Shown in pieces: positions 203-6,448 of a stretch of 6,448 nt of DNA. Source of the DNA: Promethearchaeota archaeon (GTDB lineage Archaea > Asgardarchaeota > Lokiarchaeia > Sigynarchaeales > SOKP01). Location: contig JAEOTL010000478.1 of the NCBI GenBank assembly GCA_016839845.1, forward strand, positions 1 to 6,448, written 5' to 3'. Below the pieces are notes generated by a model that saw only the letters and a list, made by a program, of their open reading frames with translations, was not told where the DNA came from and did no database searches. Made by a program: the position numbers and the translations under genes. How positions within the stretch are numbered: position 1 is the stretch's first letter; each line of letters begins with the position of its first letter.

Positions 203-736
203 ATGTTGAGTTCAGAACTCGGTAAATTAGTGAAAATAACTCTTATGGGCTCACCTGCAGTTGGAAAGACAACCATAGTCAGTCTTCTTTCAGAGGATAC
301 GTTAAATAGGTTTTATATGCCAACTCATGGATTCGATTTAAGAACTATAAAGTTTGATGGATATCATCTAAGACTTTGGGATTTAGGTGGTCAAAATCGT
401 TATTTAAGAACATATTCTAAAGATTACTTATTAGGGTCTGATATTATCTTTATTGTTACTGATTCTTCTCCTCGAAATGTGTTAAATTCGAGAGAATTGA
501 TTAATTATGCATGTCATTTTGTAGGAAAAGACTGCCCTATAATTTGTATAGCAAATAAACAAGATTTAGTAAAAACAGATGGTAGAATGAATGCTAAAAG
601 AGTTGAGGATCTTTTGCATGTAAAAACTTATGGTTTAACAGCCATAAATCCATCAGAACGCAACAAATTGTTGAATATATTAAAAAAAGAATTAAAAAAA
701 ATTAGAAATAGGAGGGAGTTAAAAAATGAACTTTAA
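203..736 (+). CDS. Arf-like small GTPase (Ras superfamily)
   Basis: This is a 177-residue GTP-binding molecular switch with all the motifs of the Arf/Arl/SR-beta/MglA side of the small GTPase superfamily. The P-loop GSPAVGKT is at 16-23. Switch I PTHGF at 40-44 holds the Mg-binding Thr41 and parallels PTIGF of Arf. Switch II WDLGGQ at 59-64 has the double glycine and catalytic-type glutamine of Arf proteins. The guanine-specificity motif NKQD is at 118-121, and a degenerate G5 (TAI) at 146-148. Arf's N-terminal amphipathic helix and myristoylated Gly2 are absent. The C-terminus is a short polybasic tail (about 164-177). I chose ATG 203; an in-frame TTG at 191 would add four residues, and neither has a Shine-Dalgarno site. 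The end overlaps the start of the longin-like gene, so the two are probably co-translated, and that protein is the obvious candidate partner or regulator. Confidence 0.93.
   Translation: MLSSELGKLVKITLMGSPAVGKTTIVSLLSEDTLNRFYMPTHGFDLRTIKFDGYHLRLWDLGGQNRYLRTYSKDYLLGSDIIFIVTDSSPRNVLNSRELINYACHFVGKDCPIICIANKQDLVKTDGRMNAKRVEDLLHVKTYGLTAINPSERNKLLNILKKELKKIRNRRELKNEL
711..718 (+). promoter_or_regulatory. Strong Shine-Dalgarno site inside the GTPase gene
   Basis: GGAGGGAG lies seven bases before the ATG at 726 and within the last codons of the GTPase gene. It fixes the start of the downstream gene and points to translational coupling, in contrast to the GTPase gene, which has no such site. Confidence 0.8.
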
Positions 737-1283
737 TGAAAATGAGTTATTTGGGGCTGCTTTAATTGGATTTGATATGATTGACGGTCCATTTCTTAAA
801 TGGAAGAAGGAATATAACAGAACAAAAAACATGGTAGCAATTGACGATTTTGCAATGAATTTCTATCTAGCTTTCCGAGGTGGGAACGCATCTGCTAAAA
901 AGCCAAAAGCAATTCTTTATGACAGCTTTTATATTGTAGCATTTCCAAGGGATTTGGAACTCTGTTGCTTATTCATGAAACCTCAAGATCTTAATGAAAA
1001 CTTTAAACAATTAAATAAGGTTGCTTCAAGAATAATTACTGAAATGGAAATTATTGAACCAGAGATGGAAATACCACAACAATCTGATGAAAACACTGTT
1101 GAAGAGATGAAAAGAATAATTCCAAACTTACTAACTGAAAATAAAATGTCAACCCCGGAATTGAGAAGATATTTTAAAATAAGTAACTCACAGATTTGGA
1201 AATTGATGTCTAGTTTAGAAAATTCAAACATAATCAAAAGAGCAGAGAAAAAGGGCAGAACAATATATTGGACTACAGTTTAA
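726..1283 (+). CDS. Longin/roadblock-like protein with C-terminal winged helix
   Basis: This 185-residue soluble protein has no signal peptide or membrane segment. Residues about 7-105 look like a longin/roadblock-type alpha-beta domain: an opening strand and hairpin (GAALIGFDMIDGPFLKWKKE), a helical middle, paired strands at about 62-85 (ILYDSFYIVAF, then ELCCLFM) and a closing helix at about 90-108. An acidic linker covers about 109-125. Residues about 126-185 look like a winged helix: helix 126-138, helix 142-149 (STPELRRYF), recognition helix 153-165 (SNSQIWKLMSSLE) and a basic wing (KRAEKKGRTIYW). Longin and roadblock folds are known platforms or regulators for small GTPases. Here the gene overlaps the end of an Arf-like GTPase gene by 11 bases, so a stable pair is likely. 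The winged helix may bind DNA or only proteins. Both domain calls rest on pattern reading; the winged helix is the surer one. Confidence 0.8.
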   Translation: MNFNENELFGAALIGFDMIDGPFLKWKKEYNRTKNMVAIDDFAMNFYLAFRGGNASAKKPKAILYDSFYIVAFPRDLELCCLFMKPQDLNENFKQLNKVASRIITEMEIIEPEMEIPQQSDENTVEEMKRIIPNLLTENKMSTPELRRYFKISNSQIWKLMSSLENSNIIKRAEKKGRTIYWTTV

Positions 1284-1307: not shown

Positions 1308-2123
1308 CTACCTAGTCCTGTGATCCCAATTTTTTTGTTTTGTAAAATACCTTGAAAAGACAATATAGCAGATATCAGGTAAATCATTATCACCGTATTG
1401 CACGGCAATATATCTTAGGATATGATTCAAAAGGAAGATTCCAATAAATTCAGTATGATAAATATCTAAATTTTCTGCGAGTTTTTCACCCTCGAAATGA
1501 ATATCAAGACCAGTATCGTTATCCCATAATATTTCTATGAAGAATTCTGGGAAGATTTCCTTTTTAATTCTCCAACCATTTATTGTTTTCCTCACTTTCG
1601 CCCCGATAAAAATCTCAAGATCTTTTTGATCATCTTCTCTTAGGAATTTGAAAGGTTCAGCTCTCTGTAATAAAACTTTTTCCATTAATTCTGATTTTGA
1701 ATTATAATTTTTGTCAAATGGTTCTTGCCCCTTTAACTTTCTTTCAATGAAATCCATAACAATATCGATGTAAGTTGCACTATCTTCACCTGGAACCCAC
1801 ATAGCGTGTTCTCCAGAGAAAAAGAACTTAAATTCTGCTTCAATTCCATCCCCAAACTCATCCCCAAAATAAGAAAATGCCATATGTATATTTACGTCAG
1901 GAAACATTTCAATAGTTATTGTCCAATCTTCGTTGAACCCTATGTTTTCAATAATACCGCCCAAATCTTCTTGGACAATTTTCTCTAATTTTTTTAGATC
2001 TATATTTACAAAAAGAGCAAATTTGGATTTGCTCACATCTTCTAATTCTTTTTCATGGGGACCTCTGACTCCTGTTGCGTCAATTTGACCAACAGTAACG
2101 AATTTTCTCTTCTCATTTGACAT
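1308..2123 (-). CDS. Uncharacterised acidic protein with internal duplication
   Basis: I do not recognise the family of this 271-residue soluble protein, which has no signal peptide or membrane helix. It looks like two copies of one domain. Copy one (about 42-130) has WTITIEMFPDVNI at 67-79, and copy two (about 157-239) has WRIKKEIFPEFFI at 184-196, giving the shared pattern W-x-I-x-x-E-x-F-P-[DE]-x-x-I. In both copies a helix and a glycine-containing turn (LGGIIENI, then IGAKVRKTI) precede this, and acidic strands then an amphipathic helix (YIDIVMDFIERKL, then FIGIFLLNHILRYI) follow. The first 30 residues look like a flexible lead. No catalytic motif stands out; a binding or scaffolding role is possible but unproven. 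ATG 2123 is supported by a TATA box that would place the mRNA start about 12 bases upstream. The gene is transcribed separately and converges on the GTPase operon. Confidence 0.85.
   Translation of the reverse strand: MSNEKRKFVTVGQIDATGVRGPHEKELEDVSKSKFALFVNIDLKKLEKIVQEDLGGIIENIGFNEDWTITIEMFPDVNIHMAFSYFGDEFGDGIEAEFKFFFSGEHAMWVPGEDSATYIDIVMDFIERKLKGQEPFDKNYNSKSELMEKVLLQRAEPFKFLREDDQKDLEIFIGAKVRKTINGWRIKKEIFPEFFIEILWDNDTGLDIHFEGEKLAENLDIYHTEFIGIFLLNHILRYIAVQYGDNDLPDICYIVFSRYFTKQKNWDHRTR
1330..1341 (+). terminator. Possible oligo-T terminator of the GTPase operon
   Basis: T7-G-T4 lies 47 bases past the operon's stop codon, within the 3' end of the convergent gene on the other strand. A weaker TTTCTTTTCT lies at 1300-1309. 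Either could end the plus-strand transcript in the archaeal manner. Because the converging stops are only 24 bases apart, the two mRNAs probably overlap at their 3' ends. Confidence 0.35.
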
Positions 2124-2279: not shown

Positions 2280-5200
2280 TTAGGTTATATCTAATGGGAT
2301 TATTAGCCCTTTTCTTTTCAAAGAAATAATAGAACTAATTATTTCATCCCTCGATGCTTTTCTTCCCGCTAAACCGAAATTTAGTAGGCTAGAGACAAAG
2401 AAGAACTTCCTCTCCTTTTGAATTTGCTCTGCTACCTCCATAAGTGCCTTTTCTAAACCTTTAAGCTTTACTACGCCATAATGCTTTCCTAATTGAAGGG
2501 GATATACAAAGGTTACATTAAAATATTTCTCAATCAGATCATCAGTTTCTCTAAACGGGGTAATGTCACCAGAAAAATCTTTCAAATTAGCTTCAAATCT
2601 CCGTTGGAAGTGCTCTGTAAAGGCTATCTGACTTTCTTTTAAGTTTTCAGAAGGAATACCATCCAGAATCAAAGCTACCCGGATATGATCACCATCAGTT
2701 ATAACAATTTTGAAATCATAATAATCCATTTCGAAACCTTTTCCCATTGCACCTTTTTTTATTTCTGTTCTGAATTGTGAGATTGCATGTAAAAATCCCG
2801 AGATTAAGTCAGCATCAATTCCCTCTAGAGATATCTGCTTATCATAAATTGATACACCCACATCCTTGTGGATTATCATAATATAACTGATTTTCAGTAG
2901 GTCATCTAAGATTTTGGATTCCCCTGCCCATACTTTCCTCTGCCTGGCATGTCTAACATATCTAACTGAAATAATTGTTGCTATCGCAACCAACCCTATG
3001 ATTATATAAGGTAAATAACGCATCAAGTTATCCATGAAAAGAGTAAGTTCACTAACAACTTTAATATAGCTTGAAGCTACTTCGGCACCGGTGTACATAC
3101 CACTTTCTGCAAACAATACTCGAATAAGGAAACCACTACCAGTACTTTCAAACTGCATTGAAGCTGTTGCGATTCCTTCTTCATTTGTGGATGCTGTAGT
3201 TTCATAAACTGTAACATTGTTAGCATTTAACAATTCAAATACAATTTCAACATTTTGCATCGGTTTACCTCCTGGTTCGAATGCTTTAGCAGAAAAGAAT
3301 GTTGCCCCCGTCATGTACTGAGTGGCAGGAATTTCTAAAAATTCGATGATAGGAATAACCTTGAAAATTTCATATGTCCCATCTACATCGAATCTTATCG
3401 AATGCCATAAGGAGGTCACATTAAATTCAAAGTATCCTTGAGAGATATCGGCATTATCGATATCTTCGACCCATGTTCCTTCATTAATTCCTCCATCTAT
3501 AATGTCTGTGCCGAAATTTTGCATTTTTATATCTGAAGGACTCAGCATATTATTGTTAAGACCTAATCCTATAGATGATGCGATATCTGACGTAATTGCA
3601 TTTTGAATATGAAAGTTTAAACTAAACTCATTAATTGAAACATTGAATCCAAAATCAGAGGAACTGTTAGTGTAATACAATAAGATGAAAGTCGCTTGAT
3701 TATTAAGTGATTCATTTAATATATTTAAAAAGATCCATGTAAAACCAGCATCAAAAGGAAGTACTACAGTAGTTTCATTTTCATGGGCAAACTCTTGGAC
3801 ATCACTCATTATAATCCATTCTCCTTCATTTGTCTCATCATCAAGAATATCAAATGTTTGATTACCCTTATAAAGAGCTAATGCCGCGAGGGGGAGGTTG
3901 TCGGGTTTACTAACATTTGAAGTGATCCTAATTTCTGCAAATGGGATAATTGGATTTGGATATGAGGCAATCCATTCATAATAATCAACGTCCCATAACG
4001 AACTATCGAGTTCATTTAGAACATTGAAAGTTATAAAAAATGCCAAACTGTAAGTAAAAGCCTGAGCCTGATAAAATTCATCGTCATTGTATTCAAGTGA
4101 TTCTAAAGTCTGAGGTCCAAACGGTGCGCTAGTTCCATTCATGAGACCTACATAAGTAGGAAAATCTAACTCTTGAACTAATGGATCATGTGGTTGTATT
4201 GTATCAAGATTCTCTAGTTCTCTTACTTCTACTTTAAACTGATTTACAGACACACTAAAATTACCCATCCCGTTTCCAATAAATTCAAGTTTAAATCTAA
4301 GAGTATTATTAGCTGTAGGTTTTATTGGATTATTATCCATTACACTTAATATTCCTATTTTCTCCCAAGGATTGGTTACTGAGTAAAAGATTGTAGTTTC
4401 ATTGTCTTTGATAAGATCATACTCGAGATTCACCCAAGGATCCGTCATTGGCCCCGCTTTAAAATTGTGCATCGACAGATTACCAGATTGGATATTTTGG
4501 CTATTTGATACATTTACTACAAGAGTAATGTCAAAACTAAAGATATATTTATAGTGTTCGATCCACCACTCTAGGAATTTATGATTCCATAATAATTCCC
4601 AATATGTAAAAGGAGAATTCTTTAATTCATGTAGATTAAATTCAACATCAATGGTCACATTGTTGGCATCCTCAGCTATGTATCTATTTTCATCAATATC
4701 TCTGAACGAGTTTAAATCACCCTGTAATAATGTTCCATTCGGGACCGTAGAAGCTCTTACATTATTCAAAGTATAGTCATCAAAAAAGAAATCAGGAGAT
4801 ATCGCAAAAGTTGCGCCTTCCCCAATATCTTGTGGATCATCCCCATCCGGATTGAAATAGAGAAATTTCGGACCTCCGCCTGTAAGTTCATCATCTTGAG
4901 GGATTTTTATTCTAAAAGCAAACCAGTATTTATCATTACCATTCTCGTTGGTTGAGTTTGTTTTAGTAATATCCAAAAAAATTGGACCACTTCCTGAATT
5001 TTTAAAATCAAAAACTTCCCAATGGGCAGCATAGACAAGCGGGTGGGGTTTCTGCATAACTCCTAAGGTATCGAATGTATTAGGCGTACCATAAACGTCA
5101 CTAGAACAATTTACAATAGCCACTTCCCAAGCGTTCTCATCGGTAAAAGAAAGAGGATTATTAATATCTTGGATTAGAATACTTACATTATTAACGTATT

Positions 5201-5597
5201 GACTTAATTCCACAGCAAATTTCTGGTATATATACGTTGGACCACGATAAGAACTAACAATAAATTCTGTAAAATCATCCTCAATATATCTTGTATAATT
5301 AATTGCTGTTATATTTTCAAAACTCATTGTGGCATGCGAGATGTTATAATTTGGAATATAGATACTTGGTTGATTATCTAAACTTGGTTGCTCTCGATTC
5401 ACATAACAATTTTTATTAATTCGAGTTATATTACTGAAAATTTTACCTGTACGATTAATCGCTTGAGTCTGGGGAATATATAAGGAATTTTGAGAGCGCG
5501 AATCACTATACTCGATTAGTTGTGAGTTATATAAAGGCACAGCAATGAAAGTTATAAGAAAAAACATGAGGAGCATTCTGCTTTTAACAGTTTTCAT
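2280..5597 (-). CDS. Large single-pass surface protein with cytosolic longin-like domain
   Basis: I choose the ATG at 5597 (1105 residues) because GAGGA (5605-5609) lies seven bases before it and a signal peptide follows at once: MKTVKSR, then hydrophobic LLMFFLITFIAV at 9-20. A TTG at 5648 would add 17 basic residues ahead of the signal. Residues about 25-857 are outside the cell and rich in beta strands, with about two dozen N-x-S/T sequons and only two cysteines (64 and 164). Beta modules appear at about 112-233, 300-460 and 500-670, the last two looking like duplicates. An Ig-like domain (about 750-848) precedes the transmembrane helix (about 861-880) and a basic stop-transfer region. Inside, residues about 900-1026 resemble a longin/roadblock domain (YIMIIHKDVGVSIYDK, helix DADLISGFLHAISQF, strand FKIVITDGDHIRVALIL, helix). 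Residues about 1047-1105 look helical or winged-helix-like. The likely role is an adhesin or receptor that binds a GTPase-type partner in the cytosol. Architecture is confident; function is inferred. Confidence 0.9.
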   Translation of the reverse strand: MKTVKSRMLLMFFLITFIAVPLYNSQLIEYSDSRSQNSLYIPQTQAINRTGKIFSNITRINKNCYVNREQPSLDNQPSIYIPNYNISHATMSFENITAINYTRYIEDDFTEFIVSSYRGPTYIYQKFAVELSQYVNNVSILIQDINNPLSFTDENAWEVAIVNCSSDVYGTPNTFDTLGVMQKPHPLVYAAHWEVFDFKNSGSGPIFLDITKTNSTNENGNDKYWFAFRIKIPQDDELTGGGPKFLYFNPDGDDPQDIGEGATFAISPDFFFDDYTLNNVRASTVPNGTLLQGDLNSFRDIDENRYIAEDANNVTIDVEFNLHELKNSPFTYWELLWNHKFLEWWIEHYKYIFSFDITLVVNVSNSQNIQSGNLSMHNFKAGPMTDPWVNLEYDLIKDNETTIFYSVTNPWEKIGILSVMDNNPIKPTANNTLRFKLEFIGNGMGNFSVSVNQFKVEVRELENLDTIQPHDPLVQELDFPTYVGLMNGTSAPFGPQTLESLEYNDDEFYQAQAFTYSLAFFITFNVLNELDSSLWDVDYYEWIASYPNPIIPFAEIRITSNVSKPDNLPLAALALYKGNQTFDILDDETNEGEWIIMSDVQEFAHENETTVVLPFDAGFTWIFLNILNESLNNQATFILLYYTNSSSDFGFNVSINEFSLNFHIQNAITSDIASSIGLGLNNNMLSPSDIKMQNFGTDIIDGGINEGTWVEDIDNADISQGYFEFNVTSLWHSIRFDVDGTYEIFKVIPIIEFLEIPATQYMTGATFFSAKAFEPGGKPMQNVEIVFELLNANNVTVYETTASTNEEGIATASMQFESTGSGFLIRVLFAESGMYTGAEVASSYIKVVSELTLFMDNLMRYLPYIIIGLVAIATIISVRYVRHARQRKVWAGESKILDDLLKISYIMIIHKDVGVSIYDKQISLEGIDADLISGFLHAISQFRTEIKKGAMGKGFEMDYYDFKIVITDGDHIRVALILDGIPSENLKESQIAFTEHFQRRFEANLKDFSGDITPFRETDDLIEKYFNVTFVYPLQLGKHYGVVKLKGLEKALMEVAEQIQKERKFFFVSSLLNFGLAGRKASRDEIISSIISLKRKGLIIPLDIT

Positions 5598-5835: not shown

Positions 5836-6448
5836 ATGTGGGTAATTTTACTGGTCTGGATTGTTGTGATTTTTGTTTCAACGGTATTTATTAGTCAGTA
5901 TATAAAAGTACAAAAAAGGGAAGATGTTGCCATTGCTTTCTATGTGCTATTTATTACGATCTCTCAGCTACTGGCCGCAAAAATTGGAGATTTCAGTGTT
6001 GGACCGTTATTTATTACTGCCCCTGTAGCTGTGCTTATATTTCCATTTACTTTTCAGATAACAGACATGGTAAACGAAAATTTTGGGCAACGAGCAACCC
6101 ACAGAATGATTTTCATCGCTTTTATTACTCAAATATTTATGACTATCTTTATCTGGTTTGGTATAGAAATTTCAAGCGCATCCTTCTGGGGATTTGATTT
6201 TGGGAGTAACCCCGTTGAAGCTCAAAGGTTTTGGGCAAGCTTCTTAGGCTCAACAGTCAGAATTACAGCAGCATCATGGATTGCATTTCTAGTAACGGAA
6301 AACCTTGATGCTTTGTTATATGCAAAAATAAAGAAGCTAACCAAAGGGAAAAATTTATGGGTACGAAATGTATTAAGTGATATCCCAACGCTTGCTTTAG
6401 ATAGTCTTATCTTTGTCAGTATAGCATTTGGAGGATTATTTTCAATGA
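5836..6448 (+). CDS. Queuosine/archaeosine precursor transporter, YhhQ/VUT family (3' end cut)
   Basis: An ATG frame runs 204 codons to the window edge with no stop; the family is usually about 220-240 residues, so only a short tail is missing. It is a multi-pass membrane protein with hydrophobic segments at about 3-20, 31-48, 57-76, 92-110, 134-153 and 183-202. Family-typical stretches are FPFTFQITDMVNENFG at 69-84 (conserved TD and NE), ASWIAFLVTENLDALLY at 146-162, GKNLWVRNVLSD at 171-182 and an in-membrane aspartate in ALDSLIF at 187-193. Family members import the 7-deazaguanine precursors preQ0 or preQ1. In an archaeon the expected use is salvage of preQ0 for archaeosine (G+) in tRNA. 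That substrate is inferred, not visible in the sequence. The gene is divergent from the surface-protein gene and shows no functional tie to it. Confidence 0.85.
   Translation, partial: MWVILLVWIVVIFVSTVFISQYIKVQKREDVAIAFYVLFITISQLLAAKIGDFSVGPLFITAPVAVLIFPFTFQITDMVNENFGQRATHRMIFIAFITQIFMTIFIWFGIEISSASFWGFDFGSNPVEAQRFWASFLGSTVRITAASWIAFLVTENLDALLYAKIKKLTKGKNLWVRNVLSDIPTLALDSLIFVSIAFGGLFSM

What the first reader, a model, noticed from the sequence alone, without database searches (positions are those of the whole stretch)
2280..5597. Giant sequon-rich ectodomain fused through one membrane helix to a cytosolic longin-like domain
Longin and roadblock domains are normally small cytosolic GTPase or trafficking modules. 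Here one appears (about residues 900-1026) on the cytosolic side of an 1105-residue surface protein with an Ig-like stalk. This layout suggests a receptor or adhesin that relays outside contact to an intracellular small GTPase or cytoskeleton, a eukaryote-like logic in an archaeon.
Basis: partly seen in the sequence, partly recalled or inferred. Interest (0 to 1): 0.75.

Follow-up and report, generated by a model that had tools for sequence, protein, structure and literature searches.

The report
Longin-tailed giant Asgard surface proteins
A Lokiarchaeal cell-surface protein appears to carry, just inside the membrane, a longin domain (a fold that eukaryotes use to hold and control small GTPases), and the same layout recurs in many related archaea, which makes it a testable candidate for an outside-to-inside GTPase signalling receptor.

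Summary
The protein is not unique. Its tail profile hits 210 of 227 genomes of a relative's phylum. All 55 complete, non-duplicate frames examined with the longin after residue 600 (841-3031 aa; 46 genomes plus the window) have a hydrophobic helix just before it; 54 also a signal-like N-terminus.
The GTPase link is supported but unproven. Window-type genes sit near the same Arf-like GTPase and its partner gene in 21 of 25 loci, and three genomes hold a protein matching both the longin and the GTPase profile. But only 5 of 22 other surface-longin loci show a GTPase gene in the fetched flanks, and binding was not tested.
Best reading: a receptor or adhesin whose longin tail docks or regulates a small GTPase. 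No description of longin-tailed surface proteins was found in the listings and passages seen.

The parts
2280..5597 (-). coding sequence of the 1105-aa surface protein (stop included)
   Evidence: homologues
5523..5597 (-). signal-peptide-like N-terminus, residues 1-25 (no dedicated signal-peptide program was available)
   Evidence: hydrophobic stretch; hydrophobic start in homologues
4818..5459 (-). membrane-distal domain D1, residues 47-260; the most conserved part of the ectodomain (64.7% mean identity to 54 homologues)
   Evidence: (model)
4089..4805 (-). beta-rich domain D2, residues 265-503, homologous to D3
3423..4085 (-). beta-rich domain D3, residues 505-725
3051..3359 (-). macroglobulin MG4 / Ig-like membrane-proximal domain, about residues 747-849
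2961..3020 (-). single membrane helix, about residues 860-879, positive inner flank
2508..2894 (-). cytosolic longin-fold domain, residues 902-1030
2295..2498 (-). C-terminal helical module, residues 1034-1101; winged-helix-like by eye only, no database match; 75.7% mean identity to 54 homologues
   Evidence: helices; no assignment
203..736 (+). Arf-like small GTPase, conserved neighbour; best candidate partner
   Evidence: Pfam Arf E 9e-20; nearest solved ARL3 E 6.8e-19 with the family profile
726..1283 (+). 185-aa protein whose gene overlaps the GTPase gene; C-terminal winged-helix-like part (weak matches), N-terminal half unassigned
1308..2123 (-). 271-aa protein of unknown function downstream of the surface gene, conserved neighbour

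Best explanation
This is one orthologous group (window type) of an Asgard superfamily of large, probably N-glycosylated type I membrane proteins with a cytosolic longin tail. Shown by sequence and model: signal-like N-terminus, multi-domain ectodomain with a strongly conserved distal domain, one membrane helix, longin, and a helical C-terminus. Inferred: the conserved distal domain binds a partner (another cell, a matrix or a soluble ligand); this changes the clustering or orientation of the tails; and the longin acts as a membrane-anchored platform that recruits or regulates a small GTPase, for the window type most likely the Arf-like GTPase encoded at 203-736, perhaps together with its partner at 726-1283, whose gene overlaps the GTPase gene.
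Against: No binding, exchange or signalling data. Surface and GTPase genes lie on opposite strands, so they are not one operon. The neighbourhood also holds an rRNA methyltransferase-like gene, DUF2070 and PAC2 genes, so slow rearrangement could explain the order, and one upstream family is also fairly conserved (9 of 13). In other surface-longin subfamilies only 5 of 22 loci have a GTPase gene in the fetched flanks (flanks unequal, loci not scored). The same longin family is also fused to a histidine kinase and to an MFS transporter, so it need not always serve GTPases. The longin assignment rests on a predicted structure.
Confidence: 0.5

Rival explanations
1. The protein is mainly a structural surface stalk (coat or adhesin), and the longin is a passive cytosolic anchor: it dimerises, stops the protein being pulled out, or docks a membrane scaffold, without regulating a GTPase.
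For: Large beta-rich, sequon-rich ectodomain with repeats and a macroglobulin-like domain; a cultured Loki shows numerous surface proteins instead of an ordered S-layer (PMC9834061, passages). Only 5 of 22 loci of other subfamilies have a GTPase gene in the fetched flanks.
Against: A ~130-residue longin plus conserved C-terminal helices is much more than an anchor needs; the tail is the most conserved part; the window-type GTPase neighbourhood.
Confidence: 0.25
2. The longin is a generic cytosolic signalling module (like PAS or GAF) and the output is transcriptional or phospho-relay, with the C-terminal helices as the effector, not a GTPase.
For: In one genome (G009) a longin of this family lies between a membrane part and HisKA/HATPase (L070), and another is followed by a winged-helix-like part (L066, Pfam below cut-off); the window partner 726-1283 has weak winged-helix matches.
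Against: The C-terminal module matched no HTH family convincingly and did not match the partner's winged-helix part; the 50 entries listed by VIA-align for the tail are, by title, longin or roadblock proteins or their complexes.
Confidence: 0.15
3. The tail is a trafficking or sorting signal: a longin that retains the protein in, or steers it to, a membrane domain, as longins do in SNAREs and adaptor complexes.
For: Closest folds are trafficking longins: Sec22b, synbindin, Ykt6, VAMP7, AP sigma/mu, COPI.
Against: Order reversed relative to longin SNAREs, with no room for a SNARE motif between membrane helix and longin; no internal membrane compartments reported in the two cultured Lokiarchaea (PMC10933270, passages).
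Confidence: 0.09
4. Artefact: chance similarity or a chimeric assembly joins an ectodomain gene to an unrelated cytosolic gene.
For: Probably metagenome-derived sequence; no sequence-level match of the window tail to Pfam or PDB longins.
Against: 152 homologues (120 listed, most over 1000 aa) and 14 loci carry the match; where complete, they have the same order; confident model; many assemblies.
Confidence: 0.01

Closest known systems
Longin domains of SNAREs and trafficking complexes (Sec22b, Ykt6, VAMP7, TRAPP synbindin, AP sigma, COPI zeta)
   Different: In the SNAREs the longin is N-terminal (recalled), elsewhere a soluble subunit; here it is in the C-terminal cytosolic tail of a surface protein, at 6-16% identity.
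SRP receptor: SRalpha SRX longin bound to the Arf-like GTPase SRbeta
   Different: In SR (recalled) the GTPase, not the longin, carries the membrane helix, and SRX precedes an NG GTPase domain; neither is so here.
Asgard longin, roadblock and longin-GTPase fusion proteins (PMC10933270, Tran et al. 2024; PMC4917890, 2016; passages read)
   Different: The passages seen describe no signal peptide-ectodomain-membrane helix-longin proteins, and say MK-D1 GTPase genes generally are not in operons with longin genes.
MglA/MglB of Myxococcus and Thermus
   Different: MglB is a roadblock homodimer (PMC10933270 passages); the window tail is closer to longins.
Macroglobulin MG4 / bacterial Ig-like domains
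   Different: A stalk element only; no thioester or complement architecture is claimed.

Membership tests
Longin fold | b-b-a-b-b-b-a-a order and a clear structural match to solved longins over the whole domain | tested here: met
Pfam PF13774 Longin (regulated-SNARE-like) sequence family | match above the curated cut-off | tested here: not met
   no match for the window tail; 1 of 27 diverse family members matches, best E 0.002; L066 is below cut-off (16.9 against 26.2 bits)
Pfam PF04099 Sybindin (TRAPP longin) sequence family | match above the curated cut-off | tested here: not met
   not matched by the window protein; one relative (L067) below cut-off, 19.4 against 25 bits, E 0.0011
Roadblock/LC7 | a-bb-a-bbb-a topology, better match to roadblocks than to longins | tested here: inconclusive
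Longin SNARE | N-terminal longin, SNARE motif, C-terminal anchor (recalled) | tested here: not met
   longin lies C-terminal of the membrane helix
SRP receptor alpha | SRX longin followed by an NG GTPase domain (recalled) | tested here: not met
   the protein ends about 75 residues after the longin; Pfam found no GTPase domain
Arf-family small GTPase (neighbour 203-736) | G1 GxxxxGK[ST], PTxG switch, WDxxGQ and NKQD motifs (motifs recalled), profile match | tested here: met
   13 of 13 rows of A3 carry each motif; Pfam Arf E 9e-20, above cut-off
Type I single-pass surface protein | signal peptide, one membrane helix, sequons outside, positive inside flank | tested here: met
   (hydropathy and sequence only; localisation not tested)
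GTPase-binding longin platform | binds a small GTPase | not testable with these tools
   needs pull-down or co-structure
Cell-surface receptor or adhesin | binds an extracellular ligand and transmits or adheres | not testable with these tools
   no ligand known

The most novel reading that the evidence does not exclude
Asgard archaea possess a phylum-wide, expanded class of true transmembrane receptors: giant glycosylated ectodomains of several kinds wired through one helix to a common longin tail that switches small GTPases, so that plasma-membrane sensing upstream of Ras-superfamily GTPases would predate eukaryotes, and longins may first have become membrane platforms there.
Probability: 0.33. 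Interest if true: 0.9.

Novelty: new variant of a known kind. Interest (0 to 1): 0.72.

Why it matters
Asgard genomes carry dozens of small GTPases and longins whose wiring is unknown; passages of one paper say partners are hard to predict from genome layout, and passages of another list operon analysis as an open question (PMC10933270 and PMC4917890). This locus supplies a concrete candidate trio (surface protein, Arf-like GTPase, coupled partner) and a recognisable architecture across the phylum. If the longin tails bind GTPases, outside-to-inside signalling through small GTPases existed before eukaryotes, and some of the surface proteins seen on Loki cells would have a cytosolic output.

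Tried and rejected
Sequence-level proof of the longin: failed for the window tail. phmmer, the profile of 25 tails and the profile of 27 diverse family longins found no longin among PDB sequences; Pfam gave one Longin match among 27 members and one sub-threshold Sybindin match in a relative. The assignment rests on the predicted structure.

The idea that the neighbour 726-1283 is itself a roadblock or longin: plausible by eye, but hhalign against the tail profiles gave nothing, and PDB and Pfam gave only weak winged-helix-type or chance matches. A protein search found 534 relatives at E <= 0.01, of which the 120 listed are 184-189 aa, without precomputed Pfam domains and 69-98% identical to the window protein. 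Left unassigned.

The idea that the last ~70 residues are a winged helix: the helix pattern fits by eye, but Pfam and PDB (low E-values only to pentatricopeptide-repeat proteins, with no single stretch passing) did not support it.

A free-standing tail: the 38 hits include proteins named partial and several short contigs; I did not establish a genuine stand-alone orthologue.

A GTPase gene beside every surface-longin gene: rejected. Of 22 distinct surface-longin proteins of other subfamilies in the loci have one within 5 kb (L071, L073, L093, L097, L099). The 22 leave out the short automatic loci L015-L060, one duplicate (L095), L076 (no membrane helix), the L067 transporters and the later loci L102-L121.

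Single membrane helix throughout the family: not strictly. 3 of the 55 frames fall short of the plain layout: L061, L077 and L102 have one further hydrophobic stretch above 1.9 (L102 also lacks the signal-like N-terminus), and at the looser limit L093, L103, L105 and L106 also have one.

Literature: what I saw of the searches is titles and abstract openings of the listed papers: 25 of 49; 20 of 26; 0 found; 15 of 409; 20 of 21; 12 of 119; 4 of 4; 2 of 2. None describes ectodomain-membrane-longin proteins in archaea. Passages only were read of PMC10933270, PMC9834061, PMC4917890 and PMC10307638 (no occurrence of 'longin' in its main text). Only licence-open PMC papers are held; absence here is not proof of novelty.

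Not done: co-folding of tail and GTPase, structure prediction of 726-1283 (both prediction jobs went to the tail and the ectodomain), any profile search outside the phylum.

Full report
What is in the window. The frame on the minus strand from ATG 5597 to the stop at 2280 encodes 1105 residues. The window also encodes an Arf-like GTPase (203-736), an overlapping 185-aa protein (726-1283), a 271-aa protein (1308-2123, minus) and the start of a queuosine-precursor-transporter-like protein (5836 on; TIGR00697 E 1.2e-20). No whole genome is held for the window. Where named, homologues of the surface protein come from records labelled Lokiarchaeota, Lokiarchaeia, Promethearchaeota or other Asgard groups, besides unassigned metagenome entries.

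Topology. There is an N-terminal hydrophobic stretch and one strong membrane helix near 861-879, followed by RYVRHARQRK. The ectodomain has 24 sequons in 835 residues, twice the shuffled expectation (11.5 +/- 3.0; 0 of 2000 shuffles reach 24); the tail has one. The outside is acidic (41 K+R, 112 D+E). This fits a type I protein with a glycosylated outside; location and glycosylation themselves were not tested.

It is a superfamily. The tail profile finds matches in 14 of 14 Loki genomes at E <= 0.01, 8 to 23 per genome, and in 210 of 227 genomes of the phylum of one relative (G004) at E <= 1e-5; 41 of 41 genomes that I re-searched, mostly weaker-scoring ones, have matches at E <= 1e-6. Among fetched loci, 55 complete non-duplicate frames have the longin starting after residue 600 (46 genomes plus the window; genomes counted from the place tables). 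All 55 have a hydrophobic helix just before the longin and 54 also a hydrophobic N-terminus; lengths are 841-3031 aa. Three of the 55 have one further hydrophobic stretch. The largest, L071, has 108 sequons in its ectodomain against 49.7 shuffled. Loci were chosen for long frames, so this shows that the architecture is widespread, not what share of longins has it. Against a pure surface role, the same longin family also occurs in 457-aa proteins without a predicted membrane helix (L062, L063), at the C-terminus of an MFS-type transporter and of a similar neighbouring frame (L067), in a membrane histidine kinase (L070), with a winged-helix-like part (L066) and fused to a GTPase (L068).

Link to the GTPase. 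In 21 of 25 loci with a window-type gene, the same GTPase group and the 726-1283 homologue lie nearby downstream on the opposite strand. L008 (partner present), L085 and L087 end at a contig edge, and L011 is a true absence, being a second copy in a genome whose other copy (L101) has the cluster. The GTPase and its partner gene overlap by 1, 4 or 11 bases in 19 of those 21. As an internal control, the upstream side is less conserved: one family in 9 of 13 loci and the others at most 4 of 13, against 22, 20, 20 and 15 of 23 for the four downstream families within four genes. In each of 11 genomes the best match to the GTPase profile (E 8.6e-84 to 1.7e-101) is the gene of this cluster, out of 29-57 matches per genome. 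In L068 (G009) a longin of this family (E 2.8e-14) is fused to an Arf/Roc-type GTPase (E 2.7e-32 to the window group's profile), and in G004 and G007 one open frame is likewise matched by both profiles. Published work already notes longin-Arf fusions in Loki (PMC4917890, passages). Evidence against: the surface and GTPase genes are not one operon; the neighbourhood includes an RsmB/F-type methyltransferase, DUF2070 and PAC2 genes, so it may simply be an old, slowly rearranged block; and only 5 of 22 surface-longin loci of other subfamilies have a GTPase gene in the fetched, unequal flanks.

Mechanism. Shown: anatomy, conservation, gene neighbourhood, and fusion of the two domain families. Inferred: D1 binds a partner; binding clusters or reorients the tails; the longin holds or regulates a small GTPase at the membrane, as SRX (recalled), TRAPP and MglB platforms do (PMC10933270 passages). 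I give 0.5 to this reading, 0.25 to a passive anchor of a surface stalk, 0.15 to a non-GTPase signalling output, 0.09 to a sorting signal and 0.01 to artefact.

Novelty. Longins, roadblocks and longin-GTPase fusions are known in Asgards. None of the titles and abstract openings listed, nor the passages read, describes longins as tails of giant surface proteins; one search found no paper. PMC10933270 states that MK-D1 GTPase genes generally are not in operons with longin genes and that matching GTPases to regulators from the genome is difficult (passages); the cluster here is a usable exception in neighbourhood, though not an operon. PMC9834061 reports numerous surface proteins on a cultured Loki in place of an ordered S-layer (passages).

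Noticed in passing
window 203-736 and 726-1283; loci L001-L014, L081-L089, L101: The Arf-like GTPase gene overlaps its partner gene (unassigned N-terminal half plus winged-helix-like C-terminus) by 1, 4 or 11 bases in 19 of 21 loci; the partner is very conserved (63-82% to the window), which suggests a tight GTPase-partner pair.
   Followed up: partly
window 1308-2123: 271-aa protein of unknown function, among the four genes downstream of the surface gene in 22 of 23 loci.
   Followed up: partly
L070:3302-5185: Membrane protein with the longin between its membrane part and HisKA/HATPase, beside several GTPase-like genes.
   Followed up: no
L067:2119-5617: Two adjacent multi-helix membrane proteins with a C-terminal longin; one matches MFS_1 just above cut-off, the other matches MFS_1 and Sybindin below cut-off.
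   Followed up: partly
L071:3738-12833: 3031-aa surface protein with 108 sequons in its ectodomain and a longin tail; a GTPase-like gene of 358 aa lies 870 bases away.
   Followed up: no
L083:11560-12708: In an assembly with a 3.34 Mb contig the window-type gene is only 382 aa, without most of the ectodomain, in an otherwise intact cluster; truncated gene or sequencing error.
   Followed up: no
L086:1773-8938: Tandem duplication of the surface gene, with a fragment matching the 271-aa neighbour at the junction.
   Followed up: no
L099:9288-10043: A 251-aa protein with its own longin (E 8e-7) ends 23 bases from a convergent surface-longin gene: a possible longin-longin pair.
   Followed up: no
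window 5836-6447: Queuosine precursor transporter-like gene (TIGR00697), upstream neighbour, running off the window.
   Followed up: no
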